Assembly: GCF_964340395.1 (NCBI RefSeq)
Contig: NC_135550.1
Span: 3,703,101-3,767,100, forward strand
Reading direction: 5' to 3'
DNA length: 64,000 bases
DNA from: Glandiceps talaboti
Lineage: Eukaryota > Hemichordata > Enteropneusta > Spengelidae
This document shows, piece after piece, positions 5,275 through 63,575 of the stretch. The notes beneath the pieces were generated by a model, which made no database searches, was not told the DNA's origin, and saw only the letters and a list, made by a program, of their open reading frames with translations. A program made the translations under genes and the position numbers. Positions within the stretch are counted from its first letter, which is position 1. The number at the start of each line of letters is the position of its first letter.

Positions 5275-5399
5275 ATGGATGGCGGGAACGTTCGTCGACG
5301 TCAAACTGGTCAAGTGTTACGAGATAGTGACGAGGGTATGGAAGATTTACCTCCTGGTGTACAAAGTTACTCGAGTGGCATAGATCAGTCTCAGATAGG
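5275..5399 (+). CDS. APMAP: APMAP-like coding exon 1 (probable start)
   Basis: ATG at 5275 opens a 41-codon segment (start MDGGNVRRRQTG) with an Arg cluster then acidic residues, as in the cytoplasmic tail of vertebrate APMAP. A good donor, GG|gtcagt, at 5399/5400 leaves two bases. These join the single leading base of the exon at 15180 to make Gly just before the hydrophobic segment. The phase match and topology support it, but a short N-terminus has little sequence signature and another first exon inside the 9.8-kb intron is possible. No TATA box was identified. Confidence 0.55.
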
Positions 5400-17300: not shown

Positions 17301-20300
17301 TATGCAGAACTTGAAGCTTGCACTCTTCATATATAGCCCAATTATTGAAAATCATTGATTATGCAAATGACTCAATAAAGCTAAGGACATGTTGCTCTTG
17401 TTATGTTTGAAGTATGAGCCAAATTATATTGATTTTGAAAAATGAATTCGTAAGATATAGCTAGTTACTGAAAATAATTGATTATGCAAAAGAGTCGTTC
17501 AAACTAGAAGCTATATTATCAATTTTATATGACACATGCACTTTGTTATCATCAATGTATGTACCAAATTATATTGAATTTGAAGTTTGCATTCTTCAAA
17601 TATAGCCTAATTAACTGAAAACCATTAATTATGTAAAAAGCTCATTTAACCCTAATCAGTTCTAGCCATTTTCCTAAAGAATATGTGCAACAAATTTTGT
17701 TTGAATTGACCCAGATGTTTTTTTAGAATACGATGACACAGGCAGACAGACAGACACACACACACATACGGTACACGCGCACACACACATAGCAGTAATC
17801 AATACAGGGGTAGTAAAGGTAGAAATAAGTCTGACTAGTTTTTTCCCTTAATAAAGGGTAAGTTAAAAGGTGGTTCACACTTGTTAAGTTTTGTAAGCTC
17901 AAACCACAGGAGTTGATCTGTCTGAATTTGATCATTTGCTAATTCAAACCAATGATATGACAATATTGACTTCTCAAAATTACTATTTGTACAACAATTT
18001 CAATACAGTATGATGCTAAAGATCAGTGAGTGATGTACTATTTGCTGACATCTTTTCCATCTTTCAGTTTACCAGATCCTCCCGAATTCACTGGAGTACT
18101 AGCACCAAATAAGAAACTACAGAGAGCCAAGAGATTGTTGGAAGGACAAATATTTGGACCTGAATCATTAGATTTTCATAATGGTAAGTAATATGAGTAA
18201 AATATAAAAGTGGTTACAGTTACTGTTACAATTGTGTCTAGCATCATCTAGAAATGTGAAATTTCTTTTGTTGTTTGAAAAGACTGAAAGCAACCTGTCA
18301 TGTAGCAATGTTTGGAGAGATTTTAAGAATTTTGAATTTTTGGTGAAATTTGTCCCCAATGTGCATTTTACCTAAAACATAATTCTGATAATTAGAATAA
18401 AATTTTATTCAAATAGAGTAGTATTCAAATACCGTAGTATTCAAATAGAGTAGTATTCAAATAGAATAGTATTCAAATAGAGTAATATTCAAATAGAGTA
18501 GTATTCATATACCATAGTATTCAAATAGAGTAGTATTCAAATAAAGTAGTATTCAAATAGAGTAATATTCAAATAGAGTAGTATTCATATACCATAGTAT
18601 TCAAATAGAGTAGTATTCAAATAAAGTAGTATTCAAATAGAGTAATATTCAAATAGAGTAGTATTCAAATACTGTAGTATTCAAATAGAGTAGTATTCAA
18701 ATACAGTAATATTCAAATAGAGTAGTATTCAAATAAAGTAGTATTCAAATAAAGTAGTATTCAAATACAGTAATATTCAAATAGAGTAGTATTCAAATAT
18801 AGTAGTATTCAAATACAGTAGTATTCAAATACAGTAATAATAATAATAATAATAATAATGTTGGGTTCTTATATAGCGCTTTCCCATGCCGTGCTCAAAG
18901 CGCTTTACAATTATTACCCCTGGCTCGGATCAGAACGGCACAACGGCCCTTTTAGTCTTCCTCAACTCCCCGGGGAGCATACAATCCATTGCAGCCATTT
19001 CAGCGCATAGGATTAAAGAAATTTCTTTTGTTGTTTGAAAAGACTGAAAGCAACCTGTCATGTAGCAATGTTTGGAGAGATTTTAAGAATTTTGAATTTT
19101 TGGTGAAATTTGTCCCCAATGTGCATTTTACCTAAAACATAATTCTGATAATTAGAATAAAATTTTATTCAAATAGAGTAGTATTCAAATACTGTAGTAT
19201 TCAAGTAGAGTAGTATTCAAATACCGTAGTATTCAAATACTGTAGTATTCAAATACAGTAGTATTCAAATAGAGTAGTATTCAAATACAGTAGTATCCAA
19301 TACAGTAGTATTCAAATACAGTAGTATTCAAATACAGTAGTATTCAAAGACAGTAGTATCCAATACAGTAGTATCAAATACAGTAGTATTCAAATACCAT
19401 AGTATTCAAATACAGTAGTATTCAAATAGAGTAGTATTCAAATAGAGTAGTATTCAAATATAGTAGTATTCAAATACCGTAGTATTCAAATACACTAGTA
19501 TTCAAATACCGTAGTATTCAAATACCGTAGTATTCAAATAGAGTAGTATTCAAATAGAGTAGTATTCAAATAGAGTAGTATTCATATACCGTAGTATTCA
19601 AATACCGTAGTATTCAAATACCGTAGTATTCAAATACCGTAGTATTCAAATAGAGTAGTATTCAAATACAGTAATATTCAAATAGAGTAATATTCAAATA
19701 GAGTAGTATTCAAATAAAGTACCGTTAAAGTCGTATTATAAGCCGCGGCTTATATTACAATGTTGCAAAATAAAGAACCAATTTTATTTCTTGAACTAGG
19801 GGTGCGACTTATAATATAGACTTTTCAATTTTTCAAAATGTGGATGTGGTAGAAATTCACCCGAACTCTCGGTTATGGAAAAATGGACGTCTGTAACACA
19901 ATATGAAAACTTTATTATGAAGTTTCCAAGTGTAAGAATGAAATGATAAGTGTGGCTGGAGGGGATCGGTAAGGCTGCCCGGAATGACAGCAACATCGAC
20001 GTTACGGTCACGCTACTCATCTTTCACTCGTTCCGTAAGATTCCCAAACAAGTACGGTAGACGCCGCCGATCTTCAGTCAGTCTTGGGAACGTTCTCCTG
20101 ATGTACTCAATGCAGCCTGTGGAATGGTAGAAACACAACGATGTCAGATATTTTGAAACGATCGTGTTTGGAAAAAATATAGGTTGAAAGTAGACTGAAA
20201 GATTTGGCGGTATAAATCAAATTGACATCGATTCTCTCATTCTAAGTTGAAAGGTCAACTGCGTTCATGAACTCGTAAACAAATTTAAATGATCGTCGAA

Positions 20301-23300
20301 TGACTATTGGCCGTTACGCATACGACGTCATGAAACGTCACGATACATTAGCATATATGAGAACACGTCGATGTAAACAACTCCATGCTTTGCTAGCGTG
20401 ATCACAGCTATGGTACATGAAACATGTGTTATAAAACTCACCTTTTGCTATCGTGATCACAGCTGAACAGAATGGTACATGAAACACGTTATAAATTAAA
20501 ACTCACCTTTTTCATCAATATATCCTTTCTCTTGAACTCGAACTCCAACACGTGTGAACAAGTACGAAGCGGCTTCTTGTACTCGGGGTGTGATCGGCAG
20601 CCATACAACTTTATCGGTACGATAGGTGTAAATGTCCCGATCCCTGCCGAAAGGATTGCGACACCCTTCTTTTGATATATATTGCGTAACTTTATCGGTA
20701 CGATAGGTGTAAATGTCCCGCTCCCTGCCGAAAGGAAGGGATTGCGACACCCTTCTTTTGATATACAGTGCGTAACTTTATTAGTACGATAGGTGTAAAT
20801 GTCCCGCTCCCTGCCGAAAGGAAGGGATTGCGACACCCTTCTTTTGATATACAGTGCGTAACTTTATGGGTACGATAGGTGTAAATGTCCCGCTCCCTGC
20901 CGAAAGGAAGGGATTGCAACACCCTTCTTTTGATATACAGTGCGTAACTTTATTAGTACGATAGGTGTAAATGTCCCGCTCCCTGCCGAAAGGAAGGGAT
21001 TGCAACACCCTTCTTTTGATATCCCAGTACGTGTGAAGAGGTGGTGCATAAAGTGATACTTTGTATTCAAATTTTAAACAAAAAGTATTACACTTGAATG
21101 CGTCGTTACTATTGTTTTGGTGCAAATACGAGGTGAAGCTAGCTGTGAAGTAGGGGTGCGACTTATAATACATACTTTCTATTATTCACAAATTGTTTGA
21201 TGTACCCTCAAAGCCAGCGCCTCCAAGTAGGGGTGCGACTTATAATATGTATGCGGCTTATAATACGACTTTAACGGTAATATTCAAATAGAGTAGTATT
21301 CAAATAGAGTAGAATTCAAATAGAGTTATTCTCTCTTTAGATGCAATATATACTGACTTTGATTTACTGATGACAATTCTCTCTACCTTTAGATGCAGTA
21401 TATACTGACTTTGACTGATTTACTGATGACAATTCTCTCTACCTTTAGGTGCAATATATACTGACTTTGACTGATTTACTGATGACAATTCTCTCTACCT
21501 TTAGATGCAATATATACTGACTTTGACTGATTTACTGATGACAGTTCTCTCTACCTTTAGATGCAATATATACTGACTTTGACTGATTTACTGATGACAA
21601 TTCTCTCTACCTTTAGGTGCAATATATACTGACTTTGACTTATTTACTGATGACAATTCTCTCTACCTTTAGATGCAATATATACTGACTTTGACTGATT
21701 TACTGATGACAATTCTCTCTACCTTTAGGTGCAATATATACTGACTTTGACTGATTTACTGATGACAATTCTCTCTACCTTTAGATGCAATATATACTGA
21801 CTTTGACTGATTTACTGATGACAATTCTCTCTACCTTTAGGTGCAATATATACTGACTTTGACTGATTTACTGATGACAATTCTCTCTACCTTTAGATGC
21901 AATATATACTGACTTTGACTGATTTACTGATGACAGTTCTCTCTACCTTTAGGTGCAATATATACTGACTTTGACTGATTTACTGATGACAATTCTCTCT
22001 ACCTTTAGATGCAATATATACTGACTTTGACTTATTTACTGATGACAATTCTCTCTACCTTTAGATGCAATATATACTGACTTTGACTGATTTACTGATG
22101 ACAATTCTCTCTAACTTTAGATGCAATATATACTGACTTTGACTGATTTACTGATGACAATTCTCTCTACCTTTAGGTGCAATATATACTGGTACTCTAG
22201 ATGGCCAAGTTGTCAAAGTTGTCGGTGATAAAATACAAACTGTTGCTACATTTGGAACCCCTCCTTGTGGTGAGTTAACCCTTGTGGTGAGTTAACCCTT
22301 CCTTTTGTGGTGAGATAATCCTTTTGTGGTGAGTTAACTCTTCCTTGTGGTGAGTTAACCCTTCCTTGTGGTGAGTTAATCCTTCCTTTTTTGGTGAGTT
22401 AACCCTTCCTTTTGTGGTGAGTTAACCCTTTCTTGTGATGAGTTAACCCTTCCTTTTGTGGTGAGTTAACCCTTCCTTGTGGTGAGTTAACTGTTCCTTT
22501 TGTGGTGAGTTAACCCTTCCTTTTGTGGTGAGTTAACCCTTCCTTGTGGTGAGTTAACCCCTCCTTGTGGTGAGTTAACCCTTCCTTTTGTGGTGAATTA
22601 ACACTTTTGTGGTGAGTTAACCCTTTCTTGTGATGAGTTAACCCTGTATTGTGGTGAGTTAACCCTTCCTTGTGGTGAGTTAACCCTTTTGTGGTGAGTT
22701 AACCCTTCCTTTTTTGGTGAGTTAACCCTTCCTTGTGTGGTGCGTTAACCCTTCCTTGTGGTGAGTTAACCCTTCCTTTTGTGGTGAGTTAACACTTTTG
22801 TGGTGAGTTAACCCTGTATTGTGATGAGTTAACCCTGTATTGTGGTAAGTTAACCCTTCCTTGTGGTGAGTTAACCCTTCCTTTTGTGGTGAGTTAACCC
22901 TTCCTTTTGTGGTGAGTTAACCCTTCCTTGTGGTGCGTTAACCCTTCCTTGTGGTGAGTTAACCCTTCCTTTTGTAGTGAGTTAACCCTTCCTTGTGGTG
23001 AGTTAATCCTTCCTTTTGTGGTGAGTGATCAGAACATAGTTTTAGACATGGCAGTGATCAGAACATCGTTTTAGGCACGGCAGTGATCAGAACATCATTT
23101 TAGACACGGCTGTGGTCAGAACATCGTTTTAGACACGGCAGTGATCAGAACATAGTTTTAGACATGGCAGTGATCAGAACATAGTGTTAGACATCGTTTT
23201 AGACACAGCAGTGATCAGAACATAGTTTTAGACATAGCAGTGATCAGAACATTGTTTTTAGTCACAGCAGTGATCAGAACATCGTTTTAGTCACAGCAGT

Positions 23301-26300
23301 GATCAGAACATAGTTTTAGTCACGGCTGTGATCAGAACATCGTTTTAGTCACAGCAATGATCAGAACATCGTTTTAGTCACGGCTGTGATCAGAACATCG
23401 TTTTAGTCACAGCAGTGATCAGAACATAGTTTTATACATGGCAGTGATCAGAACATAGTGTTAGACATCGTTTTAGACACAGCAGTGATCAGAACATAGT
23501 TTTAGACACAGCAGTGATCAGAACATTGTTTTAGTCACAGCAGTGATCAGAACATCGTTTTAGTCATGGCTGTGATCAGAACATCGTTTTAGTCACAGCA
23601 GTGATCAGAACATAGTTTTAGACACAGCAGTGATCAGAACATCGTTTTAGACACGGCTGTGATCAGAACATCGTTTTAGATATGGCAGTGATCAGAACAT
23701 CGTTTTAGTCACAGCAGTGATCAGAACATAGTTTTAGACACAGCAGTGATCAGAACATAGTTTTAGACATGGCAGTGATCAGAACATCGTTTTATACACG
23801 GCTGTGATCAGAACATAGTTTTAGACACAGCAGTGATCAGAACATCGTTTTAGACACGGCTGTGATCAGAACATAGTTTTAGACACAGCAGTGATCAGAA
23901 CATCGTTTTAGACACGGCTGTGATCAGAACATCGTTTTAGATATGGCAGTGATCAGAACATCGTTTTAGTCACAGCAGTGATCAGAACATAGTTTTAGAC
24001 ACAGCAGTGATCAGAACATAGTTTTAGACACAGCAGTGATCAGAACATAGTTTTAGACATGGCAGTGATCAGAACATCGTTTTATACACGGCTGTGATCA
24101 GAACATCGTTTTAGTCACAGCAGTCATCAGAACATAGTTTTAGACACAGCAGTGATCAGAACATAGTTTTAGACACAGCAGTGATCAGAACATCGTTTTA
24201 GACACGGCTGTGATCAGAACATCGTTTTAGATATGGCAGTGATCAGAACATCGTTTTAGTCACAGCAGTGATCAGAACATAGTTTTAGACACAGCAGTGA
24301 TCAGAACATAGTTTTAGACACAGCAGTGATCAGAACATAGTTTTAGACATGGCAGTGATCAGAACATCGTTTTATACACGGCTGTGATCAGAACATAGTT
24401 TTAGACACGGCTGTGATCAGAACATCGTTTTAGTCACAGCAGTGATCAGAACATAGTTTTAGTCACAGCAGTCATCAGAACATCATTTTAGACACGGCTG
24501 TGATCAGAACATTGTTTTAATCACAGCAGTGATCAGAACATAGTTTTAGACACAGCAGTGATCAGAACATTGTTTTAGTCACAGCAGTGATCAGAACATA
24601 GTTTTAGACATGGCAGTGATCAGAACATCGTTTTAGACACAGCAGCCATCAGAACATCGTTTTAGACACAGCAGTGATCAGAACATAGTTTTAGACACAG
24701 CAGTGATCAGAACATAGTTTTAGACACAGCAGTGATCAGAACATCGTTTTAGACACGGCTGTGATCAGAACATCGTTTCAGACACAGCAGTGATCAGAAC
24801 ATAGTTTTAGACACGGCTGTGATCAGAACATCGTTTTAGACACAGCAGTGATCAGAACATAGTTTTAGACATCGTTTTAGTCACAGCAGTGATCAGAACA
24901 TCGTTTTAGTCACAGCAGTGATCAGAACATCGTTTTAGACACAGCAGTGATCAGAACATAGTTTTAGACACGGCAGTGATCAGAACATTGTTTTAGACAC
25001 GGCAGTGATCAGAACATAGTTTTAGTCACAGCAGTGATCAGAACATTGTTTTAGTCACGGCAGTGATCAGAACATAGTTTTAGACATCGTTTTAGTCACA
25101 GCAGTGATCAGAACATCGTTTTAGTCACAGCAGTGATCAGAACATCGTTTTAGTCACAGCAGTGATCAGAACATCGTTTTATCAGTGTTGGACAATTAAA
25201 ACCTAAGCTTTGAAGGTGCTGAACAACAATCTTCTCCTTGTCACAGATATCATACAGATATCTACTGACACAAAATAATAGTGAGTGTCTTGAGCTGACG
25301 TAGTATCATACAAATATCTACTGACACAAAATATAGTGAGTGTCTCGATCTGACGTAGGGTCTTACTATCAGGTTGTTTTGTCAGTGACGGTAGTCACTT
25401 TGTTAAACAAAGTAACTTTCACAGACAAGCAATCAAGTAAGAGCTCTGTATAAACCTACATCATAGAGACTCACTGTTATTTTGTATTAATATAGAATGT
25501 ATATTTAACACTGCCACAAGGAGAACATTGTTTGGCAGTCCACCTACCGCTAAAACGATGTTCTGATCATTGTCATGTCTAAGTAACTGGTAGAAGGGTG
25601 GTAAAACGTGATTCTTGGTCAGGTGTTCTTGTGAGCCATATGGGTTATAGGAATGTGTCAAAAGAATTTATTGTGCATCAAACTGCAAATGTAGCTTTAA
25701 TAGAGGGCATAACTGGTCTAGAATAGCAAGAAAAATCAGTATCTTCAGTTTCATTCATCAGTTCCAAAGTCACAAATGTCTCTGACATTGTTGTACATTG
25801 AGGTGTAAAAAAAACCCTCCAAACCCAAAATGATTACATAAATTTCACCAGCTCTCCTAACTACTTTGAAAATCAAGAAGCCTTATAACTGAAACAACCA
25901 ATCTGTATTGTAGGTAAATATGAAGATGAACCCACCTGTGGTAGGCCCCTAGGAGTTCGCATGACAGAGGATGGAACACTATATGCATTAGATGCATACC
26001 TTGGACTACATAAAGTTAATACCAAGACAGGTATATAGTTTCATCTTTATTCTACAACGCAGGGTCATAATTTGGTATGTAATCATTTGAACACACTTGT
26101 TGTAATATTTTAACTTCTAAATGGGTCTGAATGACACCATAGACCTGTACTGGATGAATTTGTGCACTGGTGTAATAACTCATTCTTACTTTTAAATGTC
26201 ACCAAAACAAACAGACATGATTATTGATTTTAGGAGAACTGTTTAAAGTCCTGAGAATACCATCATATGTGACCAGAAAGTCTGTTCAAAGTCCTGAGAA

Positions 26301-29300
26301 TACATGACCAGGAAGTCTGTACAAAGTCCTGAGAATACATGACCAGGAAGTCTGTACAAAGTCCTTAGAATACATGACCAGGATGTTGAAATAGTATCAA
26401 AATACGTCATCAATAGTGTCATTCTTGATGACAAATTATAATGGGATTTTAACTGATGCTATTGTGAAGAAGCATCAGCAACATTGATATTTTTTGAGAA
26501 AACTATTATATAGTAAGTTCTTTTGAGGTTGCTAGAACAATCTTATCCCGATTCTAGAAAAAAATATATTCTTGACCTTTTCATTCATCTGTTGATTTCA
26601 GAAATTGAGTGCAAAATATAATTCACTTCAAAAGATTGTTTGTTTCAATTTGTTCCAAAATAATTAGAATACCACATACGACAGTTGTCGCTTGGTCTTT
26701 TATAATCAATAAGTCCAGAGAAAAGAAGACACAGTTTTAACCATTTAGAATCATGATTAACACCAGAGAAATGTAGAGAAATGTACGGGCCATAGACAAG
26801 ACTAGTTCCGCTGTACTATTTCCATGGTCCACATCAGATAACACCACCCCTTATGGAGCTTATGAGAATTACATATTAAGTAGAAACAACATTGGATCTT
26901 TTAGTCTACCCTCTATTAAAGTAAAATGATGATATCTGCACTTCACTTGATGCCGGCAAGAGTGTTCTGCTTGTTCTCCTCGATCTATCGGCGACCTTTG
27001 ACACTATCGACCATGATATCTTACTATCACGATTATCTGACATTGGCATCAAAGGTACCCCCCTGAACTGGTTTGCATCATACCTCTCCAATCGTCAGCA
27101 ATCTGTTCTAGTTAAGGATACTGTCTCTACCCCAACTCTTCTTCAATCAGGTGTTCCACAGGGATCGGTACTTGGTCCTCTACTCTTTTGCATTTACATC
27201 TCCCCACTTGGTCAGTTAATTCGGCAGCATGATCTTAACTTCCACCTATACGCAGATGACAGTCAACTCTACAATGCTCTTACTCCATCAGACATCTCTC
27301 TATCGGTTAGAAACATGGAAGCTGCTGCTAATGACATCAAGACGTGGATGACCAAGAATAAGCTCAAACTCAATGACGACAAAACTGAAGTCTTACTCAT
27401 TACATCGAAATTCAGTCGACCTCAAAGTCCAACTATTGATAACATCCATATTGGCGAAAGTACAATTCAACCAGCCGAAACAGCTCGTAATATTGGTGTA
27501 ACTTTCGATTCTCATCACACGTTAAAAAAGCACATATCCACAACATGTCAATCAATCTACTATTATCTCAGGAAAATTGGCTATATCCATCCCTACCTCT
27601 CCAAATCTACTTGTCAGAAACTCGTCCAGGCATTAATATCAAGCAAACTTGACAATGGTAATGCCCTACTCTATGGCTTACCCAACGATCATATCTAACC
27701 ACTCCAACATGTTCAAAACGCTGCAGCAAAAATCATCATGCGAGCCAGGAAATATGATCATGTAACACCACTCCTAAAGGAACTACACTGGCTACCAGTT
27801 CAGGACAGAATAAAGTTCAAACTTTTGCTCATGACATACAAGTCCCTCCAAGATACTTATCAGACCTTCTTCACTGGAAACAGCTACGAGAACACTGCGA
27901 TCAACAAATAAACATCTCCTATATGTACCTAAGTACAAGCTGGAATCTTATGGAGGAAGATCGTTTTCTTCTGCTGCGCCTCGTCTGTGGAATGAACTAC
28001 CAATTGAAATTCGTGAACAAGTTACAATTAGCACATTTAAAAAACACTTAAAGACTTACCTGTTTTCTCAAACATTTTGACTGTAAAGCGCCTTTGAACT
28101 CTTGTCATAGTGGAATTGGCGCTATATAAATTGCATCGATTGATTGATTGATTGATTGAAAATGCTATTACAGATACAAAGAATTGTGTGGCTCAGTGTG
28201 TATTGTACTGAGACATTGAAAATTCTGAACAGCATCTCCACTCCATGATAAATCATAAATATAGTAGTGCACTTGTACATATTTGTTAAAGTTTGCAAAT
28301 GTCAAACCGAGTGATTTTTTGTCAAAAATTACAGGTTGGGAAAAATAATGAATGAATTGTACCAGTTGACTGAAGTATTTGGTGGTGAATTTCAAATTGG
28401 TATCTAATAACAAAATATTTAATATTGTTTACCACGTGTCATTTATTTGGGGTATAATTAGTTAGTCTAGATGCTATACACTAATTGTTTTGAATCTAAA
28501 GTTCTCTCCATCCACGTCTAGTCAAATGGATCTAATCAAGGAAAAATCTAGCTTGACCACATGGTAACAAATGTGTGAACTACTGTACAAACTAAACCAC
28601 ATGGTAACAAATGTGTGAACTACTGTACAAACTAAACCATATGCTAACAAATGTGTGAACTACTGTACAAACTAAACCATATGTTAACAAATGTGTGAAC
28701 TACTGTACACACTAAACCATATGCTAACAAATGTGTGAACTACTGTACACACTAAACCACATGCTAACAAATGTGTGAACTACTGTGCAAAGTAAACCAC
28801 ATGCTAACAAATGTGTGAACTACTGTACAAACTAATTGTAGAAAGCAGATGTTATGTCATATTTCTAAATCATGTAGAAATTCTTTGCAACATTGTGTGA
28901 TATTTTGTTTGTTTTTTAGGTGATGTGACCACCCTGATATCATCTAACTTTGTTATTGATAATAAACCATTCAAATTTCTGAATGACTTAGCTGTCCAAG
29001 ATGATGGCATCATTTATTTCACTGATTCAAGTTATAAATGGGAAAGAAGAAATAATCGATATTTAATAGCAGAAGGGGGAGATTGTGGAAGGTAACTTTT
29101 TAACAAATTCTTGAATGGTGTAGTAAAAACCAGAGAAATTAAAGTTTTAAACTTTCTACTATGCTAAGAAAACTTCAACCAATGCATGATGAAAACCAAG
29201 AAAAAATAACCAGGGTCATCATTTCTGTTGGAGTAGAGGTCACAATGACTTTGAATCAAAATGGCCACCAAACACTGAACAAAAATATTGGCCATCTCCT

Positions 29301-32300
29301 TGAACACAAATGAACACCCATAGTTATTTTATTATTTCAAAATGACCAGGTACAAACTGTTCTCTTGTTTTCATTCTCAGACTAATGTGGTACAATCCAA
29401 CAACAAGACAAGTCAAAGTACTGCTTGATAACCTTTACTTTCCCAATGGAGTGGAACTTTCTGCTAAACAAGATTTCTTGTTGATATCAGAGACAACTAG
29501 AGCCAGAATACTCAAGTAAGTCCAAATCATATGAGAGAAAGTGTTTGGCAAATCAAGGTCAATCTTATGTGTGAATTAACTTAATACAATAGTATAATAA
29601 GAATGTATACTTATATATGAAGATATGAAGATATTTTATGATTTGATAAATCAAATTTAAAACTGCACTAGCTGTAACTGAAATAGTATTTATGAATCAA
29701 ACAACCAACAATTTATTCACTAGAAATTGTTAAAATATCAATAATTAGACTTTGTATGTTAATGTTAATTAGACATTGTATATGTTAAATAGACATTGTA
29801 TATGTTAAATAGACATTGTATATGTTAAATAGACATTGTATATGTTAAATAGACATAGTACATGTTAATTAGACATTGTGTATGTTAAATAGACATTGTA
29901 TATGTTAAATAGACATAGTACATGTTAATTAGACATAGTACATGTTAATTAGACATTGTACTTGTTAATTAGACATAGTACATGTTAATTAGACATAGTA
30001 CATGTTAATGTTAATTAGACATTGTATAATTATGTTAATTAGACATAGTACATGTTAATTAGACATTGTACATGTTAATTAGACATAGTACATGTTAATG
30101 TTAAATAGACATAGTACATGTTAAATAGACATTGTGTATGTTAATTAGACATAGTACATGTTAAATAGACATTGTGTATGTTAATTAGACATAGTACATG
30201 TTAATTAGACATAGTACATGTTAAATAGACATTGTGTATGTTAATTAGACATAGTACATGTTAATTAGACATAGTACATGTTAAATAGACATTGTGTATG
30301 TTAATTAGACATAGTACATGTTAAATAGACATTGTGTATGTTAATTAGACATAGTACATGTTAAATAGACATTGTGTATGTTAATTAGACATAGTACATG
30401 TTAAATAGACATTGTGTATGTTAATTAGACATAGTACATGTTAATTAGACATAGTACATGTTAAATAGACATTGTGTATGTTAATTAGACATAGTACATG
30501 TTAATTAGACATAGTACATGTTAAATAGACATTGTGTATGTTAATTAGACATAGTACATGTTAAATAGACATTGTGTATGTTAATTAGACATAGTACATG
30601 TTAATTAGACATAGTACATGTTAAATAGACATTGTGTATGTTAATAGACCATTACCCGTCTCGCGGGAGACGCCATTGAGTGCATAGCAACCACATTCGG
30701 GTGGTCAAGCTGAAGTGTCAACCGCTTAGCAACACCATTGTTCTCGACGTCACGTACAGTGCAATACGTATGATCATGGAAGTATACTTCCATGGTATGA
30801 TAGATCAAGGGAAGCAAACTTTTAAAGTATGGTTGTAAAAACGATGTGCGTATGTGAAATTCATAACTAGCCGTCAGACGTGACGGTGATTTTTGGCCGT
30901 CTGGGCGCAGATGAAGAGCGGTTGAGCATGTTGAGATTGACAGTTTCAACATGAACTTGAAAATATTACTAGAGTTGGATCCACTCGAGGATCGCAGGCC
31001 CTATGGTTGAAAACTTGCATGTCAGGTCGCGAATATTGTATTCCTATTTTTAAACAACGTCTAAAATTTGATACAATGTCATAAATTTTCCATAGACTTT
31101 TTATACGTCGCGTAGCGTCGTCTAAAAACCAACACAACAACGTGTACGCGATCACTTTACTGTATAACGTGCTGTTAATAGTTGGCAATGATGTAATTCT
31201 TAGTCCGTAATTCGTCAGCTAAATTCGTCAGGGTCCGCTAAAAACTTTGAAATCGGTTGAGAATTTTTTTCGCTGTCTTTGATTTTATCATATACATTTA
31301 TAAATGAGCTATATATATGCATTTAAAATTAAAATTTAGAGATACTATATCGTTTTATTTTACGAATTTGGACTATGAGTTCTACAACATGTTCATCGAA
31401 CTCAAGTATAAACATGGCTGACACGTACACGTGTTTCACGCATCGCCGGTGATTCCCAATTCTAGTTCCTGACGATTGTATTCCGATTTTACTCTAAGTT
31501 ATCTTCATACAGTACTAGTCTAGTTCATGACGACCGTATTCCGATTTTACTCTACGTTATTAAGGTAGGGTAAAATTGGAATACGGTCATTGGGAACTAG
31601 ACTGGTAGATATTGTTGTATGAAGATAACATGTGGTAAAATCGGAATATGATTGTCAGGAACTGACTATGATTTCCCGATCTGTGACGATAATTAAGAAC
31701 TTTTCAATTCTGAACTCTAGGACCGAAACGGGACATTGGCACTCTAAAAATGTGTAAGACTGTTAGCTTTCGTCCGTATTTGTCAACAGCGTAAATGTCA
31801 ACGGTTCATAAGGGCTTACGGCGGATGTGTAGTAGTACTACGCCACACTTCATGTGCATTGCATTCTAATATACTTACATTGAATATTGGTGACGGGAAA
31901 TGTTTCCACCATGTACATGTGTACTAATAATCAAAACTACTCGATTTTGCTTGTCATTAATTACCATTTCTCAAGATTGAAATATTATAGCCATCTAGTA
32001 TGCTGCATAAGTTTGGCACTGACAACGTATTCCCAGAAATGACTGTCAGTTCGGAAATATAATGACAGTGTGACACTGGCGTATTTTTCTTTTAACTTGA
32101 TGTTGACACGCTATATTTTCGCAACATGCTCTTTAGTTCGTGTACTTTCAATTTTTCAATGTCTTCCATGATGACTTAGGATTGTAGATGGTCACAAACG
32201 GTAGTATTTTTTTCAGACTAATGCATTGACTTTCATATGAACAACATGGCCACTCCGCAAAGCTTGACCTCCGTAGCAACCGTTGCTAGGTTATTTGCAT

Positions 32301-34315
32301 ATCTCGCGAGATCTGCCGCGAGACGGAAAATACTCTATTAGACATAGTACATGTTAATTAGACATAGTACATGTTAAATAGACATTGTGTATGTTAATTA
32401 GACATAGTACATGTTAATTATACATAGTACATGTTAAATAGACATTGTGTATGTTAATTAGACATAGTACATGTTAATTAGACATAGTACATGTTAATGT
32501 TAAATAGACATTGTATATGTTAAATAGACATTGTGTATGTTAATTAGACAGTACATGTTAATTAGACATAGTACATGTTAATTAGATGTAGTACATGTTA
32601 ATGAGTATGTCCGTCACATCAGTAGTACATTTCAATGAAATCGTGATCACATTGAGGGTGCTAATTTTTGTGTGCGGCCCAAAAGGGGGTTGTATTATAA
32701 AGGGCTCCATCCGTCTGTCTGTCCATCCGTGCATCCGGCCTTCCATAATATGTCATTTTTCAGACATGCAATATCCAATTTCTTTCAAACCTGACACAAA
32801 GGTCACATATCATATCATGTATCTTTTTTTTTATATATGCAAATTTGACCTAATGGCAGTCATATTTGTAGTTAAAAATCAATATTTACTGCATAACTCA
32901 AAAACTGTAATACACAGACAGTCTATTTGAGTGTCTAACCCCATATTATCAGATGTGAGCTATCTTGGGAGGCCTTGACTTTTGACCTTCAGGGTCAATT
33001 GTCAAAATCAAGCCAATTCCTGCCTATCACAGACATATTGTAGTGCTTACATATTGCCAATTTCTTTTAAATCATGTTTACAAGTAATATTGAAGAAAGG
33101 AACTATATATGTCAAGCATTGTTTTGATAGTTTTCCCCAGTGCTCAGTTCAAACTGGATGACATTTTCCTTGAAATCTAGGTGTTTAAAGTGAAAATATG
33201 GTACATACGTTCATAGCGATAGTCTTTCCCGTCTACAGGTAGGCTAGGCTGACTTGTCAGCCGGATAGAAAATTAGCAAGACAAGTGTATATGGAAGACA
33301 GATGATGGCCGGGATGAAACGGTTGGACAAGTTTTGGTGCAAGGAGTAGTAGAAAGTGGCAAAGTTCGTGCGACTACCACATGTATCCTGATGACTTTTT
33401 GTGCAAGTCACAGAAAATTAATTTATACACAACATGAAAGAACATGTGTTTGAAGTGTTGTATGTTGCCAGTCCGGCAGTGTGTCCCATGAAAGGACTTG
33501 TAGAATGTATGGAAAAAGTGCTATGGTCACTAGCCCCATCTACACAACACTAAAACAGGGCTTAGGACGGTTTGAGGCCCATGGAGATGTAAACATCTCA
33601 AACCTGTCCTGAAACTGTCCTGACTTAGGATACCTTTGAGAGGTTTCCTGAAACCTTCCAGACTTCGTCCTATGTACTGTCAGGACGGAGTCAGGAGGGT
33701 ACACGTGACATCTATGCCATAACCTTCGATGTCTTGAAAAGTGAGGAGACGTCATCTCTCTTATGGTCTTGTCTACTTTTGATACGAGATGATGTTAGAT
33801 TTACAAAATATCCCATATTTATCGGCGATTTCGTTGTCTTGTTTAGTCATATATAGACCTTCCACTCACATTAGTCTTCATTTCCCTAATATTGTCCTTT
33901 ATGAAGTTGTCATTCCTTGCATTCTATCTATTTCCGAGTACCAGTGTGCATGGCTTGTACAACGTTTAATTGGCCGGTATATTGAATGTTGCATTAGCAT
34001 CTTTAGCAAACGTTGCTACATTTGGTGTTTAACGCACGTCTTACAATAAATGACATCTTTATCATCTTTGAAACAAGGAAATAAACAGTTACAGTAAATG
34101 ACATTCATCAATGAAACAAAATATGTGTCGACAAGAATGCCTACGTGACGCGTATTTCCAATGGGTCAGTCGGGTACTACCTCTGGCAAATAAATATATA
34201 CTAGCATAGTACGAGCGCACATGTTGACATCGACCTGCTGTATTACATATCAACCTAAACCAGCTTTTATCGCCTTGTAACGTTGTTATCATCATCATCA
34301 TCATCATCGTCGTCG

Positions 34316-34361
<46 letters not shown>

Positions 34362-37300
34362 AAAGATTCAGTTTACTTCATTGTACATTGTAGTATACAT
34401 TCTCTTGGTGTTCTGAGTACACATGCATATATCATGAAAAGTTGAGAACAACACGTCTACGTATGTAATACAGCAGGTCGACGTCAACATGTGCGCTCGT
34501 ACTAGAAGTACCTGACTGGCCCATTGGAAATACCTTTACCCGTTGCACATGGATCGTACGTGGCTGAAGTCGCGTTTGTTGGAAAAAAACAGATACTATC
34601 ACATGTAAATTAACAGTTTTGAGATCTGATATAATGTTTGAGCTATCAATTTCGAAGGTAATAAGTATTTGACGCCAAAACGCGAGTGTGAAGCTATATC
34701 ATATTCATATTCATCTTCACTTTCAAAAGATGACCTCCACGCTCAATGTGAATATATGACGATAGCTTCACACGTTCATCATCAGTAAGATTCGAAGTCT
34801 TCCGAATGGGTACGAACACGCGTTCGGCAAATCACATATCCTTAATTGACATGTTGAAATCATGTGATTGTAATTACTTTCCCTTGATTTGCATGGATTT
34901 TTATGCTCTATTTTCATTTTTGCCAGAGTATCAAAGTATTGTTGTCATATAAAAAACTAATTTGGATGTTTAGTATGCCTTTCCCATATCTTTGAAAATG
35001 AAATATCAGTATATCATATGGGTGTACAAAACACCTATATGAGTAATGTAATAAAATACGGCCTGGCTGGGTGTGTTTTGAATCCGTGACATCAAGTGAC
35101 AAGGTGATATCACTTGGCCACTTAGTGTCATGGATTGTTTTGATTTCCCGCAGTGCCACTATCTTTGAAACCCTACTTAACACTTAACACTTACACTGGT
35201 GAAATTGACATAAATTGTCAAAATAGTGTTGTCAAGATCACAATTATCACAATGTATGTAGTTCCCTTGATAGGGGAGGGGCAATGCAATTGATTGTAAA
35301 AAATATGGTCCATGACAACAATAGTTCATGGTGCAAATTGGATACTCTGGCAAAAATAAAGAGAGCATGCAAATTCATGCAAGTCAAATGAAAATTAATT
35401 ACAATCACATGATTTCAATCTGTCAATGAAGGATATGTGATTTGCCGAATGCGTGTTCGTACCCATTTAGGAGACTTCGAATCTGATGATGAACGTGTGA
35501 AGCTATCATATTCACATTGAGCGTAGAGGTCAACTTTTGAACGTGAAGATGAATATGAATATGATGGTAGCTTCACACTCGTCGCCGAAACACGTCATAA
35601 TGGATGTCAAAGGTCACGCCTCGTACTCGTGACAGGCGGTACGAGCACGACATGCTCTGCAAGTTGAAAATTTTTTTTTTTTTAAATTTAAAAAATGAAA
35701 TAAAAAACTAACAAAAAATATATTTTGACTTTCAATTATATATAATCCTTAAAAAAATTCTGGTTTGACGAAAAATAAAACAATATTCTCAAATAAATGC
35801 AAACTTATTTCAATTAAAATAATGTGAACATGGAATAAAAGTACATAAACTGTTAAAATTAGTTTGTAAGTACGAAAAATATAAAATACTTTTGGCCTGA
35901 ACGGCTTCCCATACAAGAGGACACTCACTCAAGATTTTTAAACCAACTGTCAGACTGAATATCCGGAAATAATTCTTTTCTCAACATGTTGTACTCCACT
36001 GGAACAATTTACCAGAACATGTTATTGGAACAGGAACTGTTAAAGACTTTAAAATTGTCTTGGACCAGTACTGGAACACTATAGGGATTATATAGGCCTT
36101 TAAGGCTTTTCTCCCTTACTTGTCAAGGATGGATGTTACCATGGCAATCATATTAAATCATATTAAATCAACTTACATCACTCCAGGATAGACGCACAGC
36201 AAACAGGCTAATTTTTCTATACAGGGTGGTTGAAGGCCTAGTACCAGCAATTCAACCAGCGGACTATCTTAAACCCAAAAGTTCTATAAAAGCTAGGAAA
36301 TTTGCAGACTGTATCTCAGCTAACATTGTTGAACAAAGAGTTACCAACAACTCAAAATGCTTTGAAATTGACAATTGTAAAACTGCTCAATATAAACAGT
36401 CATTCTTTGTAAAAACACTAGTAGACTGGAACCATCTGGACAATAGTACTGTGTGCGCTAAATCTTGTGATGCCTTTAAAATGGCAGTCACTGTCAAAAA
36501 CCATTCTGACTAAATACTCTCCCCTGGTGTGTTATTCCTTACCAAGGACCAACACCATAACTATACAGATACAGATACAGATACAGATACGATACAGAAG
36601 TATACGCAGGCATTTATTTTTGGTGCTCATTCAATTTTTACGGAATGACAGCCATTATTTTTAGTAAACAAAAAATCACTATATATAATACTGCATAACT
36701 AAACAACTTCAATCATAGGCTCTATTCATAGACCATCAAATTCTAAGATATTATTTACATATTGCAGACACTTTATAGCAATTATGTGTGGTCTTTTAGA
36801 TCATGTCTATAGATAATGCAGGACCAGATAAACATACACAATCATGCATTACTTTTGGTGCTCATATATCTTTTTACTCAATGGCAGCCATATTTGTAGT
36901 GACCAATCATGTTTTACAAAAAAACGTTATTACATGGAGACTACATTATGTGTCTATTTGAGGGACTATGTCTTGTATGAAGACTTGTTTTTAGGGTTTT
37001 TTGTCACAATTAAACGAAATGTAGACACTGATACCATGCAAGTATATAAAATGATACATTTTATCTCATTGTGAACACAAATCAACATCACTGTCAGATA
37101 AAAAAATCCAAGGAACATTCAAACACAAAACTGTAGTTTATTTTAATATGTTCTCAGTCAGATAAAATGCAATATTTCATGTGTGCACCAGTTATGTGTC
37201 TGTATTTTGTTTGTGTAATTCATACCTAAATATATTGTGATAAAAACACCATTCCACCTAATTGATTTGACCGTTTGTTTTTCAAGATATTATCTGAAAG

Positions 37301-40300
37301 GACCACAGACAGGCAAAGTTGAAGTTTTTGCTGACAATCTTCCTGGACTTCCAGACAACATTAGAAGCAGTAGTGGTGGTGGTTACTGGGTTGGCCTTGC
37401 TACAATTAGAAATCCAACATTCTCATTGTATGACATCATGGCATCTAAACCATGGATAAGATCTTTACTGTTGAAAGTAAGTGATTAGTTACCAATGGGC
37501 AATGCCTGGAGGGCTGGTTGTTTTCTAGTGGTTGGCACATTTAAATTACAACCCTCAAATTATTATGCTGCAAAATCTTAATTTATTTCCATCACAATTT
37601 TGGTAAAATGAACCAGTCATCAAACTAAGTTGACAATGACTATATATAATGTTTAAACTTACAGTTGCACATTCAGAACAAACTCACCTGATCAGCTCCT
37701 TTTACACTGGAAGCAAAATGTCGTCTTGATGTGCCTGGATGTTGAGATGTTTACATCAGTCTACACTGTCACAGGTCACTCGCTCATAAGGTCTGGCCAT
37801 GTGATACCTTATAGAATGGGACTCTCACCCAGGGCTACTATAAATGACATTCTATCGCATTATAATGGACTCCAAGTGTATAATTATTTAAATGTCTGTT
37901 TCTGAATGTGCAACCTTTTAAAATGTAAATATGTTTGCATACAGTTTAAGAGTCACATGACAGACACATTTCATTTTCTAAAACATGACAGTCAGAGCAA
38001 TTGAGGTGTGATGTATGTACATATCCATACACTGTAATTGAGTTGTGTATATCCATACACTGTAGTGTAATTGAGTTTGTGATGTGTGTACATATCCATA
38101 CACTGTAATTGAGTTTGTGATGTATGTACATATCCATACACTGTAATTGAGTTTGTGATCTATATACATATCCATACACTGTAATTGAGTTTGTGATGTA
38201 TGTACATATCCATACACTGTAATTGAGTTTGTGATCTATGTACATATCCATACACTGTAATTGAGTTTGTGATGTATGTACATATCCATACACTGTAATT
38301 GAGTTTGTGATGTGTATGTACATATCCATACACTGTAATTGAGTTTGTGATGTATGTACATATCCATACACTGTAATTGAGTTTGTGATGTATGTACATA
38401 TCCATACACTGTAATTGAGTTTGTGATCTATGTACATATCCATACACTGTAATTGAGTTTGTGATCTATGTACATATCCATACACTGTAATTGAGTTTGT
38501 GATGTATGTACATATCCATACACTGTAATTGAGTTTGTGATGTGTATGTACATATCCATACACTGTAATTGAGTTTGTGATGTGTGTACATATCCATACA
38601 CTGTAATTGAGTTTGTGATGTATGTACATATCCATACACTGTAATTGAGTTTGTGATGTGTGTACATATCCATACACTGTAATTCAGAGTTTGTGATGTA
38701 TGTACATATCCATACACTGTAATTGAGTTTGTGATGTATGTACATATCCATACACTGTAATTAGTCCCCGCGGACGAAGTCCGGAACGGGGACTTATGGA
38801 TTGGGTTCCGTCTGTCCGTGCGTCCGTGCGTGCGTGCGTCCGTCCACAGCTGTTTCTTGGAGATGCCTAGACCGATTTTTTTCAAACTTGGTACAGGGGC
38901 AACATACTATGGCATACATATGCACGTCAATTTGTTTTATGATACGATCCAATATGGCCGCCTAGCAACCATTTTGTTTGCGAATTTTCCCTGTCTAAAG
39001 CCATAACTCAGACATGCTTGAACAGATCTCATTCAAAGTTGGTATTAGGACAGTGTTCTATGACATACATGTGCGTATCCATTTTCATTGTGATACGATC
39101 CAATATGGCTGCCTGGTAGCCATTTTGTCTGTGAATTTTCATGTCCAAAGCCATAACTCAGACATGCTTGAACAGATCTCATTTAAAGTTGGTATTAGGA
39201 CAGTGTTCTATGACATACATGACTGTGCATATCCATTTTCGTCGTGATACGATCCCCCATACCCAACCAATCCTTTATTGTTGGAGGCATATTCCATGTC
39301 CAACAAGCACACACAACATATCTAAGTCTGTTTGTTTTAGGTTCACAAATGTTGTTGCGTGATCAGAGTAGTGATAATTCCTTAAAACCCAATTATAGCG
39401 GGGACTATGTCATTCTCAATGACTTGTTGAGTTGTGATCTGTGTACATATCCATACACTGTAATTGAGTTAGTGATGTGTGTATATCCATACACTGTAAT
39501 TGAGTTTGTGATGTGTATGTATATATCCATACACTGTAATTGAGTTTGTGATGTATGTACATATCCATACACTGTAATTGAGTTTGTGATGTATGTACAT
39601 ATCCATACGCTGTAATTGAGTTTGTGATCTATGTACATATCCATACACTGTAATTGAGTTTGTGATGTATGTACATATCCATACACTGTAATTGAGTTTG
39701 TGATCTATATACATATCCATACACTGTAATTGAGTTTGTGATGTATGTACATATCCATACACTGTAATTGAGTTTGTGATGTATGTACATATCCATACAC
39801 TGTAATTGAGTTTGTGATCTATGTACATATCAATACACTGTAATTGAGTTTGTGATGTATGTACATATCCATACACTGTAATTGAGTTTGTGATGTGTGT
39901 ACATATCCATATACTGTAATTGAGTTTGTGATGTATGTACATATCCATACACTGTAATTAGTCCCCGCGGACGAAGTCCGGAACAGGGACTTATGGATTG
40001 GGTTCCGTCTGTCTGTCCGTGCGTCCGTCCGTGCGTCCGTCCGTGCGTCCGTCTGTCCGCAGCTGTTTCTTGGAGATGCCTGTACCGATTTTTTTCAAAC
40101 TTGGTACAGGGGCAACATGCTATGGCATACATATGCACATCAATTTGTTTTATGATACGATCCAATATGGCCGCCTAGCAGCCATTTTGTTTGCGAATTT
40201 TCCCTGTCTAAAGCCATAACTCAGACATGCTCACACAGATCTCATTCAGAGTTGGTATTAGGACAGTGTTCTATGGCATATATGTGCATATTCATTGTTG

Positions 40301-43300
40301 TCATGATACGATCCAATATGGCCACCTGGCAGCCATTTTGTTTGTGAATTTTACATGTCCAAAGCCATAACTTAGACATGCTTGAACAGATCTCATTCAA
40401 AGTTGGTATTAGGACAGTGTTCTATGACATACATGTGCATATCCATTTTCATTGTGATACGATCCAATATGGCTGCCTGGCAGCCATTTTGTTTGCAAAT
40501 TTTCCATGTCCAAAGCCATAACTCAGACATGCTTGAACAGATCTCATTCAAAGTTGGTATTAGGACAGTGTTCTATGACATACATGTGCATATCCATTTT
40601 CATTGTGATACGATCCAATATGGCTGCCTGGCAGCCATTTTGTTTGCAAATTTTCCATGTCCAAAGCCATAACTCAGACATGCTTGAACAGATCTCATTC
40701 GAAGTTGGTATTAGGACAGTGTTCTATGACATACATGTGCATATCCATTTTCGTCATGATACGATCCAATATGGCTGCCTGGCAGCCATTTTGTTTGTGA
40801 ATTTTCCATGTCCAAAACCATAACTCAGACATGCTTGAACAGATCTCATTCAGAGTTGGTATTAGGACAGTGTTCTATGACATACATTTGCATATCCATT
40901 TTCATATTGATATGATCCCCCATACCCGACCAATCCTTTATTGTTGTAGGCATGTTCCATGTCCAACAAGCAGACACAACATATCTAAGTCTGTTTGATT
41001 TAGGTTCACAAGTGTTGTTGCGTGATCAGAGTAGTGCTAATTCCTTAAAACCCAATCATAGCGGGGACTATGTCATTCTCAATGGCTTGTTGAGTTTGTG
41101 ATGTATGTACATATCCATACACTGTAATTGAGTTTGTGATGTGTGTACATATCCATACACTGTAATTGAGTTTGTGATGTGTGTACATATCCATACACTG
41201 TAATTGAGTTTGTGATGTGTGTACATATCCATACACTGTAATTGAGTTTGTGATGTATGTACATATCCATACACTGTAATTAAGTTAATGATGTATGTAC
41301 ATATCCATACACTGTAATTGAGTTTGTGATGTGTATGTACATATCCATACACTGTAATTGAGTTTGTGATCTATATACATATCCATACACTGTAATTGAG
41401 TTTGTGATGTATGTACATATCCATACACTGTAATTGAGTTTGTGATCTATGTACATATCCATACACTGTAATTGAGTTTGTGATGTATGTACATATCCAT
41501 ACACTGTAATTGAGTTTGTGATCTATGTACATATCCATACACTGTAATTGAGTTTGTGATGTATGTACATATCCATACACTGTAATTGAGTTAGTGATGT
41601 ATGTACATATCCATACACTGTAATTGAGTTTGTGATCTATGTACATATCGATACACTGTAATTAAGTTAATGATGTATGTACATATCCATACACTGTAAT
41701 TGAGTTTGTGATGTATGTACATATCCATACACTGTAATTGAGTTTGTCATCTATGTACATATCCATACACTGTAATTGAGTTTGTGATCTATGTACATAT
41801 CCATACACTGTAATTGAGTTTGTGATATACCGGTATGTACAATTTTGTCAGTGATATGTAAATTAGATCTAAAAATGTGACTTTTTGGTCAAAAGTCTAA
41901 ATTCCAAATTTGGTGAGCAGATGAGGCTGAGATTTGGTGGGAACATTATTCGGGGTGTTCATATTAAGAAGTATTCATGACATGATGATCCCATCAGTAA
42001 TATGCAAATTAGGGCTAAAAATGTGTTACTTCCGTAAAAAATTATAATTCCAAAAGTACTGAACAGATTAAGCTGATAGTTGGTGGGAGTGTTCTCAGGG
42101 GTGTTTAGATTAAGAATTATTCATGATATTGTAATTCCATCAGTGATATGTAAATTAGTTCTGAAATATCTTTTTGGTCAAAAATCTATAATTCCAAAAC
42201 TACTGAGCAGATTGGGAATTTAATGGGGAAGTCTATGGAGATGTGTACAGGAAGGTGTATTCATAACATTAGTGGTATGGAAATTAGGTCTAAAAGTCTC
42301 AATATTGGTAAAAAACTTAGATCTTGAAAACTGATGAATGATGAATGGGACTGAGGCTTAGTGGGGGAATATGTTTCTGGAAGTGTTATTCTGCAGTTGT
42401 TGTTCAACATTTTGACACAGTTGGCCCAAGCAAACATTGCCACGCCCTTAGTAATAGTGAATCATGATGGATGTTACGAAGATAACGACATGGATGGGTG
42501 AATAAAGAATAAAAAATGTATGTAAATATACCTAGGAACATATGTGCCCATGGCAACATCCTAATACAGTTGTGCTGCGATGCCATTGTGCTAGAAAATT
42601 TAGGTGCAGGATTAGGTCACTGGTGGCTGTAGGGCAGAGGTTAATATTTAAATAGGTTGTGATGCAACACAGAGGGCGTACTCATGTGATTGCGATTCAC
42701 TTCATCCCATTTTCAACTCGTCCCATTTCAACTCGCCCAATTTTAACTCGTCCCATTTTCAACTCGCCCCATTTTTAACTCGTCCCATTTTCAACTCGCC
42801 CCAACAACACTAGGAAACGTTTATAAATCTAAACGATACATGGACTCGAAGTACGGGACCGAAAAATTTACATGATTTTACCTACGTAGCCAGTTGAGCG
42901 TAGCAAATGTAACATTTCATACCAGAAAGTGGTGTGGGTTTTGGCTAAGTGTTTGCTAGATCTAGAACTTATACTAGCACAACAACTTTCCTCAGTCATG
43001 GAATATCACTTTTCACACTTTTAGGACTTAATGTTTACAACCCAAATAAGAAATAATAATGATTATAACCAGGGAGAATATTAGTGACTGACATGCTTAC
43101 GACTTCCACGCGTACGGGTTTTGGAGACGTGTCTCTTCTCCCTCGTACTTCATTAGTGGAAAACGAGATACCACACACCCTCCAAACTGAGTACTACTAG
43201 CTTCGATTTCATATATGCACAGGTAAATTATATTGTAAAGAGTTGGGGCGAGTTGAAAATGGGGCGAGTTGAAATTGGGGCGAGTTGAAAATTGCACGAG

Positions 43301-43599
43301 TTGAGTGGGACGAGTTCAAATGGGATGAGTTGAAATTGGGACGAGTTGATCCGTCACCTACTCATGTGACTCAAGGTCACATGTTACTTCATATTCTTGC
43401 TTGGTGCAAATCATGGTGTAAATCTCATAAACATTTGACCTGGCAGATCATAAACCGTTACTGTCCATGTCTGTTCTATTTCTTAGTATGTTTTTGATAT
43501 CAGGTGAACTAAGGTGTTGAACAGATCTAAAATGCTCCTCAGACTGAAAAGGTTTTGGCAGAAACTGAAATGGTTCACTAGTGCTGTAGACATGGTGAA

Positions 43600-50647: not shown

Positions 50648-63575
<12,928 letters not shown>

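What the first reader, a model, noticed from the sequence alone, without database searches (positions are those of the whole stretch)
21329..23028. A coding exon enclosed between minisatellites made from its own two splice sites
Exon 4 of the APMAP-like gene (22177-22269) is preceded by about 15 tandem copies of its acceptor region and followed by about 35 copies of its donor region. The two arrays have different units (56 bp and 19-23 bp), so the exon's two ends were amplified independently. From memory, minisatellites spanning an exon-intron junction ('mirage' type) were described at the amphioxus Adh locus. I do not recall one exon having both junctions amplified. The result is a field of up to about 16 acceptors and 36 donors from which the splicing machinery must choose.
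Basis: partly seen in the sequence, partly recalled or inferred. Interest (0 to 1): 0.92.

Follow-up and report, generated by a model that had tools for sequence, protein, structure and literature searches.

The report
Exon flanked by splice-site minisatellites
In an acorn worm, one small coding exon sits between two long tandem arrays built from copies of its own two splice junctions, a natural test of how the cell picks the right splice sites among dozens of near-identical decoys.

Summary
The window comes from the acorn worm Glandiceps talaboti (its NCBI APMAP-like protein equals my nine-exon model, 438 of 438 residues). Exon 4 (22177-22269) has upstream 15 extra copies of its acceptor region (56-bp unit, 15 nt of exon in each) and downstream 35 extra copies of its donor region (17-23 bp). 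All 16 acceptors keep AG; 33 of 36 donors keep GT. Of 528 acceptor-donor pairs only the innermost keeps the frame. Most likely this is a double 'mirage' minisatellite: exon definition uses the innermost pair and the decoys leave with the introns. Special targeting of splice sites is not supported: arrays span 7 of 179 sampled junctions in two other gene families, against 7-8 of 159-179 control points inside the same introns, though a twofold effect either way cannot be excluded. Single-sided precedents exist: amphioxus mirages and the human ABCA7 VNTR, where transcripts keeping one repeat unit are about 2%. New here: both junctions of one exon, the copy number, the phylum, and a rate estimate. 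No RNA was available.

The parts
5275..5399 (+). APMAP-like gene, coding part of exon 1
   Evidence: translates to the start of P0028
15180..15284 (+). APMAP-like exon 2
18068..18183 (+). APMAP-like exon 3
21335..22191 (+). acceptor-side minisatellite, 56-bp unit: 15 decoy acceptors (21341-22121) plus the real one; ends 15 nt inside exon 4
22177..22269 (+). APMAP-like exon 4, 93 nt, phase 1-1; real acceptor CCTTTAG|GTGCA, real donor TTGTG|GTGAGT
   Evidence: same 31 residues in P0028
22256..23026 (+). donor-side minisatellite, 17-23-bp spacing, 36 donor positions of which 33 keep GT; starts 14 nt inside exon 4
23024..25181 (+). third minisatellite, 29-bp unit, abutting the donor array inside intron 4; not junction-spanning
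25914..26030 (+). APMAP-like exon 5, 117 nt, phase 1-1
28920..29091 (+). APMAP-like exon 6
29381..29515 (+). APMAP-like exon 7
37287..37476 (+). APMAP-like exon 8
44079..44342 (+). APMAP-like exon 9 with stop

Best explanation
Exon 4 of an APMAP gene carries a double 'mirage' minisatellite. Origin (inferred): in a genome rich in minisatellites, two separate tandem duplications happened to be seeded on segments that straddle the exon's acceptor and its donor, and both grew outward into the introns. Only outward copies leave the protein untouched, so only these persist. How it works (inferred): exon definition pairs the acceptor and donor that lie closest together. The 93-nt pair is kept, and the decoy acceptors and donors leave with introns 3 and 4. 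A wrong pairing breaks the reading frame (shown), so mis-spliced messages should be removed by nonsense-mediated decay. The cost of the decoys is then leakage rather than wrong protein, which lets such arrays persist at about the density of arrays elsewhere in the same introns (shown in a sample, within about twofold).
For: Arrays and register. Gene model equals the annotated Glandiceps protein, 438 of 438 residues. The 31 residues of exon 4 are present, with no residue missing, in the 13 homologous proteins that I picked from the listing and aligned with P0028. Decoys are not weaker in signal: 25 of 35 decoy donors score at least as high as the real one on a consensus table recalled from memory, and 8 of 15 decoy acceptors have the identical 41 nt upstream. 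Only 1 of 528 pairs keeps the frame to the normal stop; 172 of the 528 change the length by a multiple of three. Junction-spanning arrays elsewhere: 7 of 179 junctions (95% interval 1.6-7.9%) against 8/179, 7/179, 7/165, 8/162, 8/160 and 7/159 at points 20-120 nt into the same introns. In a second gene with such an array (L039, 141 bp x 2), the annotated myosin-Id P0148 uses the innermost donor. Human precedent with RNA: the ABCA7 VNTR contains the exon 18 donor in 12 to about 427 units; retention of one unit is 2 +/- 1% of transcripts at steady state (PMC5954066, passages and section 21 read). [quoted passage not shown]).
Against: No Glandiceps RNA was seen; the NCBI proteins may be homology-guided predictions. 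From memory (Reed and Maniatis 1986; Eperon 1993), two-exon test constructs with identical 5' splice sites favour the intron-proximal copy, which here would be the wrong one. In ABCA7 the 2% is a steady-state figure, blocking decay raised the premature-stop transcripts, and in 90% of the cases of one brain region the alternative forms together, mainly exon 19 skipping, exceeded the canonical one, so an array beside an exon need not be harmless. Predicted local RNA structure does not make the real sites more open than the decoys (real donor ranks 35 of 36, real acceptor 15 of 16). The 1-of-528 result is partly expected, because intron sequence usually has stops in every frame. Both junctions of one exon being hit is a rare coincidence under independence: about 0.15% of exons if each junction has a 4% chance (inference); the 7 sampled hits lie in 7 different exons.
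Confidence: 0.77

Rival explanations
1. Splice junctions are preferred seeds for minisatellites in this genome, for example through R-loops, pausing or motif-dependent slippage, so the double array reflects targeting.
For: Two arrays on one exon; 7 more junction arrays among 179 sampled junctions; the same kind of array is reported at several amphioxus genes. The sample interval (1.6-7.9%) still allows up to about 1.8 times the control rate.
Against: Control points inside the same introns are spanned as often: 45 of 1,004 non-independent control tests against 7 of 179. A second method gave 5 of 135 at junctions against 3-9 of 135 at points 10-100 nt into the intron. The other 14 junctions of this gene have none.
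Confidence: 0.1
2. The arrays are functional: the repeated U1 sites and the repeated branch-point/polypyrimidine units recruit splicing factors and strengthen or tune inclusion of exon 4, perhaps with allele length as a dial.
For: All 15 decoy acceptors and 32 of 35 decoy donors keep their core dinucleotides. In human ABCA7, array length changes skipping of the downstream exon.
Against: High identity among units can come from recent homogenisation alone. No comparison with other hemichordate genomes was possible. Junction arrays occur at about the background rate, so no selection needs to be invoked.
Confidence: 0.08
3. The arrays are noisy and harmful: much of the transcript is mis-spliced into frameshifted or exon-skipped forms, and expanded alleles lower gene output, as with long ABCA7 alleles.
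For: ABCA7: downstream exon skipping averages 12-45% by tissue and rises with array length. Exons 4 and 5 are both divisible by three, so skipping either alone keeps the frame (for exon 4; exon 5 by its length of 117).
Against: No RNA was seen. In ABCA7 the decoy-donor product itself is only about 2% at steady state.
Confidence: 0.12
4. The arrays, or their copy numbers, are an assembly artefact.
For: Tandem arrays are error-prone in assemblies, and raw reads could not be inspected.
Against: The arrays are 0.77-0.86 kb; the assembly has 590 Mb in 47 contigs, which suggests long reads; the units carry scattered, distinct variants rather than one copied unit.
Confidence: 0.03

Closest known systems
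Amphioxus 'mirage' minisatellites (Adh3, BflGb6, BflGb9, PGBD5)
   Same: Tandem units that straddle an exon-intron boundary and repeat its splice signals; in BflGb6 the boundary units escape the homogenisation of the inner ones, as the odd outermost unit does here.
   Different: Cephalochordate, not hemichordate. The passages read (globin and PGBD5 papers; Adh3 only as cited there) describe no exon with separate arrays at both junctions. Copy numbers there: BflGb6 6 and 3 units in two haplotypes, BflGb9 a duplicate, PGBD5 2 or 7 and 3 or 6 units by assembly. Here both junctions of one exon are amplified, with 16 and 36 copies.
Human ABCA7 intron 18 VNTR (25-bp unit including the exon 18 donor)
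   Same: Donor-side array whose unit starts with the real splice donor; dozens of like donors downstream of the exon.
   Different: One side only. It is known to vary in length between people and to raise skipping of the downstream exon; neither could be tested here.
Recursive splicing (ratchet points)
   Same: Six of 16 acceptor units, the real one included, read AG|GT (G as first exon base), so an acceptor is directly followed by GT.
   Different: The following GT (GTGCAA) lacks the GTRAGT consensus of a ratchet-point donor (consensus recalled).

Membership tests
mirage minisatellite | tandem array whose unit spans an exon-intron boundary | tested here: met
   both junctions of exon 4; exonic 15 nt and 14 nt lie within the units
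mirage minisatellite | units repeat the splice signals | tested here: met
   16 of 16 acceptors keep AG; 33 of 36 donors keep GT
mirage minisatellite | normal splicing is not disturbed | not testable with these tools
   no RNA; only the annotated protein with exact exon 4
mirage minisatellite | copy number varies between or within individuals | not testable with these tools
   one assembly only
mirage minisatellite | reported host lineage: amphioxus (not treated here as defining) | tested here: not met
   Glandiceps talaboti, Hemichordata
recursive splice site | acceptor directly followed by a strong donor (AG|GTRAGT) | tested here: not met
   5 decoys and the real unit read AG|GTGCAA
ABCA7-type donor VNTR | unit contains the exon's donor | tested here: met
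ABCA7-type donor VNTR | array length changes skipping of the next exon | not testable with these tools
   needs RNA from several alleles

The most novel reading that the evidence does not exclude
The paired arrays act together as a multivalent splice-site amplifier. Some 33 U1 sites and 16 U2AF/branch-point units concentrate splicing factors around a 93-nt exon, so it is defined more reliably than its single sites would allow, and allele length tunes gene output.
Probability: 0.06. Interest if true: 0.9.

Novelty: new variant of a known kind. Interest (0 to 1): 0.6.

Why it matters
To my knowledge, choice between splice sites of equal strength has mostly been studied with engineered duplicates. 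This exon is a natural contest of 16 acceptors against 33 donors in which one of 528 pairings gives the protein, in an animal whose sampled genes include milder versions, from two copies upward. If RNA shows that the innermost pair is nearly always used, exon definition and proximity must override site strength and copy number to a very high degree. If it does not, the leakage per decoy can be read directly. The sample also suggests, within about twofold, that duplicating a splice site on the intron side is close to neutral, which bears on models of intron gain from mirages and on human VNTRs such as ABCA7.

Tried and rejected
Hiding of decoys by RNA structure: rejected on local folding; the real sites are no more open than the decoys. 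Preferential seeding at junctions: not supported. A test at 6,000 random positions of the 264-kb neighbourhood gave 24% inside tandem duplications and 5.5% in terminal units; it was kept as background only, because that region is array-rich. Amphioxus as the source: rejected. Scanning the ORFs of the 264 kb against Pfam was prepared but not run.

Controls inside exons: points 30 and 50 nt inside the exon were spanned in 7 and 3 of 179, because some arrays have long units that reach that far; with the second method points 10-40 nt inside gave 1 of 135 each. So the edge of the arrays relative to the junction is not sharp in the first method.

Rows dropped: 74 of 78 myosin places and 31 of 102 transporter places were used. 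Of their 210 ends, 179 passed the splice-signal thresholds; the acceptors of 11 first-exon transporter matches were left out beforehand. L078, which on reading looks like an eighth case, is not in the count of 7; L055 has an array with donor-like units that starts beyond its donor and is not counted either.

Limits: exon ends in the sample are my own calls from domain matches plus splice signals; flanks were 140-250 bp, so copy numbers there are lower bounds; the six control offsets re-use the same introns and are not independent; in the own-gene check both ends of exon 2 were one base off, which should not alter the result.

Full report
What is there. The window is G000:C2:3703101-3767100 of a 590-Mb, 47-contig assembly. 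Nine exons read from the window give a 438-residue protein identical to the NCBI record 'adipocyte plasma membrane-associated protein-like [Glandiceps talaboti]', so the organism is an enteropneust hemichordate. The protein carries Str_synth, SGL and SSL_N domains, and the Str_synth search found one place in the genome among five scored candidates. Exon 4 is 22177-22269, 93 nt, phase 1-1.

The arrays. Upstream, 21335-22191 is a 56-bp array (15.4 copies, 96% matches) in which a full unit holds 41 nt of intron end and the first 15 nt of exon 4; the outermost unit is 52 nt. There are 16 acceptors including the real one; all keep AG, and 8 of 15 decoys share the real site's 41 upstream nt exactly. 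The first exon base is G in the real copy and in five decoys and A in the other ten. Downstream, 22256-23026 is a 21-bp array (36 copies) in which a typical unit holds the last 14 nt of exon 4 and the donor. Of 36 donor positions 33 keep GT, and 25 of 35 decoys score at least as high as the real donor. A third array of 29-bp units abuts it (23024-25181). Within the 3,847 bp from 21335 to 25181 only 64 nt, the core of exon 4, are outside arrays. The match of the exon ends to the units is not chance (0 of 100,000 shuffles each).

What wrong choices would do. All 16 x 33 = 528 pairings were translated with the other eight exons. Only 22177/22269 reads to the normal stop, although 172 pairings change the length by a multiple of three. 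Leaving out exon 4 keeps the frame (407 residues), but its 31 residues have no gap in any of the 13 homologous proteins compared. Intronic stops are common, so the single open pairing is partly expected; its value is that mis-splicing should be visible to nonsense-mediated decay.

Is it special in this genome. The window is 39% tandem repeat, and the 264 kb that include it 29% (the 264 kb hold 15 kb of withheld bases). In these 105 exons with 179 scored junctions, 7 junctions (2 acceptors, 5 donors) are spanned by a tandem array in the same geometry. Points 20-120 nt into the same introns are spanned in 7-8 of 159-179; points 30 and 50 nt inside the exons in 7 and 3 of 179, where long-unit arrays still reach. 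A second, lag-match method on the myosin set gave 5 of 135 at junctions, 3-9 of 135 at points 10-100 nt into the intron and 1 of 135 at points 10-40 nt inside the exon. With 7 of 179 the interval is 1.6-7.9%, so a twofold effect either way is not excluded. Reading the cases bears them out: for example L087 repeats the myosin P-loop codons with their donor, L057 repeats 58 bp across a donor, L036 repeats an acceptor. So junction-spanning arrays are fairly common here and occur at about the rate found for other points of the same introns. The seven hits lie in seven different exons, and none reaches the copy numbers of exon 4 within the flanks fetched. The other 14 junctions of the APMAP gene have none.

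How it most likely works. Shown: the arrays, the signals, the frame logic, the annotated use of the innermost sites at APMAP exon 4 and at the myosin-Id junction of L039 (P0148). Inferred: introns 3 and 4 are about 4.0 and 3.6 kb, long enough that exon definition should rule, and the closest acceptor-donor pair is the real one. The best experimental parallel is human ABCA7, where the exon 18 donor lies in a 25-bp VNTR of 12 to about 427 units; transcripts that retain one unit are 2 +/- 1% at steady state, while longer arrays raise skipping of the next exon, which is 12-45% by tissue (PMC5954066, passages and one section read). By analogy I predict over 90% innermost splicing at exon 4, a few per cent frameshifted by the first decoy donor (17 nt), and, for long donor alleles, in-frame skipping of exon 5. 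Against this, memory of two-exon constructs (Reed and Maniatis 1986; Eperon 1993; not read here) says that identical 5' sites favour the intron-proximal copy; if that held here the gene would fail, so the locus is a real test. Local folding does not single out the real sites.

Comparison with known things. 'Mirage' minisatellites were described in amphioxus Adh3 and then in globin genes and PGBD5 (PMC3087553 and PMC3902484, passages read; the Adh paper itself is not held). The globin paper notes that both 5' and 3' boundaries can be affected, with its examples in different genes, and proposes that mirages can create introns. Our case meets the structural definition. It differs in lineage, in having both junctions of one exon amplified, and in copy number. 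The listings of ten searches, some aimed at other questions and some capped, showed no report of a double-sided case; this is weak evidence because most subscription papers are not held.

Verdict. Real, well-formed, a new variant of a known kind. The striking claim of two self-made arrays stands; the implied special mechanism of formation is not supported. The lasting interest is as a natural experiment on splice-site choice and as a sign that duplicated junctions may be close to neutral in a minisatellite-rich animal genome.

Noticed in passing
38066-38762, 39427-39959, 41090-41826: The same 38-bp unit forms three separate arrays in intron 8, interleaved with arrays of about 150-bp units.
   Followed up: no
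29762-30649 and 32337-32602: Two arrays of the same 20-bp unit in intron 7, about 1.7 kb apart.
   Followed up: no
51054-55258 and 57102-59119: Two very large arrays (104 and about 49 copies) with the same 40-42-bp unit, 1.8 kb apart, beside a minus-strand exon of a branched-chain keto acid dehydrogenase alpha-like gene.
   Followed up: partly
42705-42803 and 43244-43349: Two arrays whose 16-bp units are reverse complements of each other, about 440 bp apart, so an inverted pair of minisatellites.
   Followed up: no
26925-27698: Reverse-transcriptase fragment (PF00078) of a retroelement in intron 5.
   Followed up: partly
L057 and L078 (C12:385591-393739): Two exons about 7.5 kb apart on C12, apparently of one myosin gene, each have a repeated donor region; L078 is my reading and was not in the automatic count.
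   Followed up: partly
L039 and P0148: A 141-bp duplication across a myosin-Id donor; the annotated protein uses the innermost donor.
   Followed up: yes
P0029 at the exon 4/5 boundary: Saccoglossus APMAP has one extra residue at the place of the Glandiceps exon 4/exon 5 boundary, possibly a shifted splice site in that lineage.
   Followed up: no
G000:C2 against the NCBI contig of P0028: Held contig C2 is 33,936,675 bp while the longest contig listed for P0028 is 33,943,121 bp; the C5 length matches that of P0148's contig exactly. Reason unknown.
   Followed up: no
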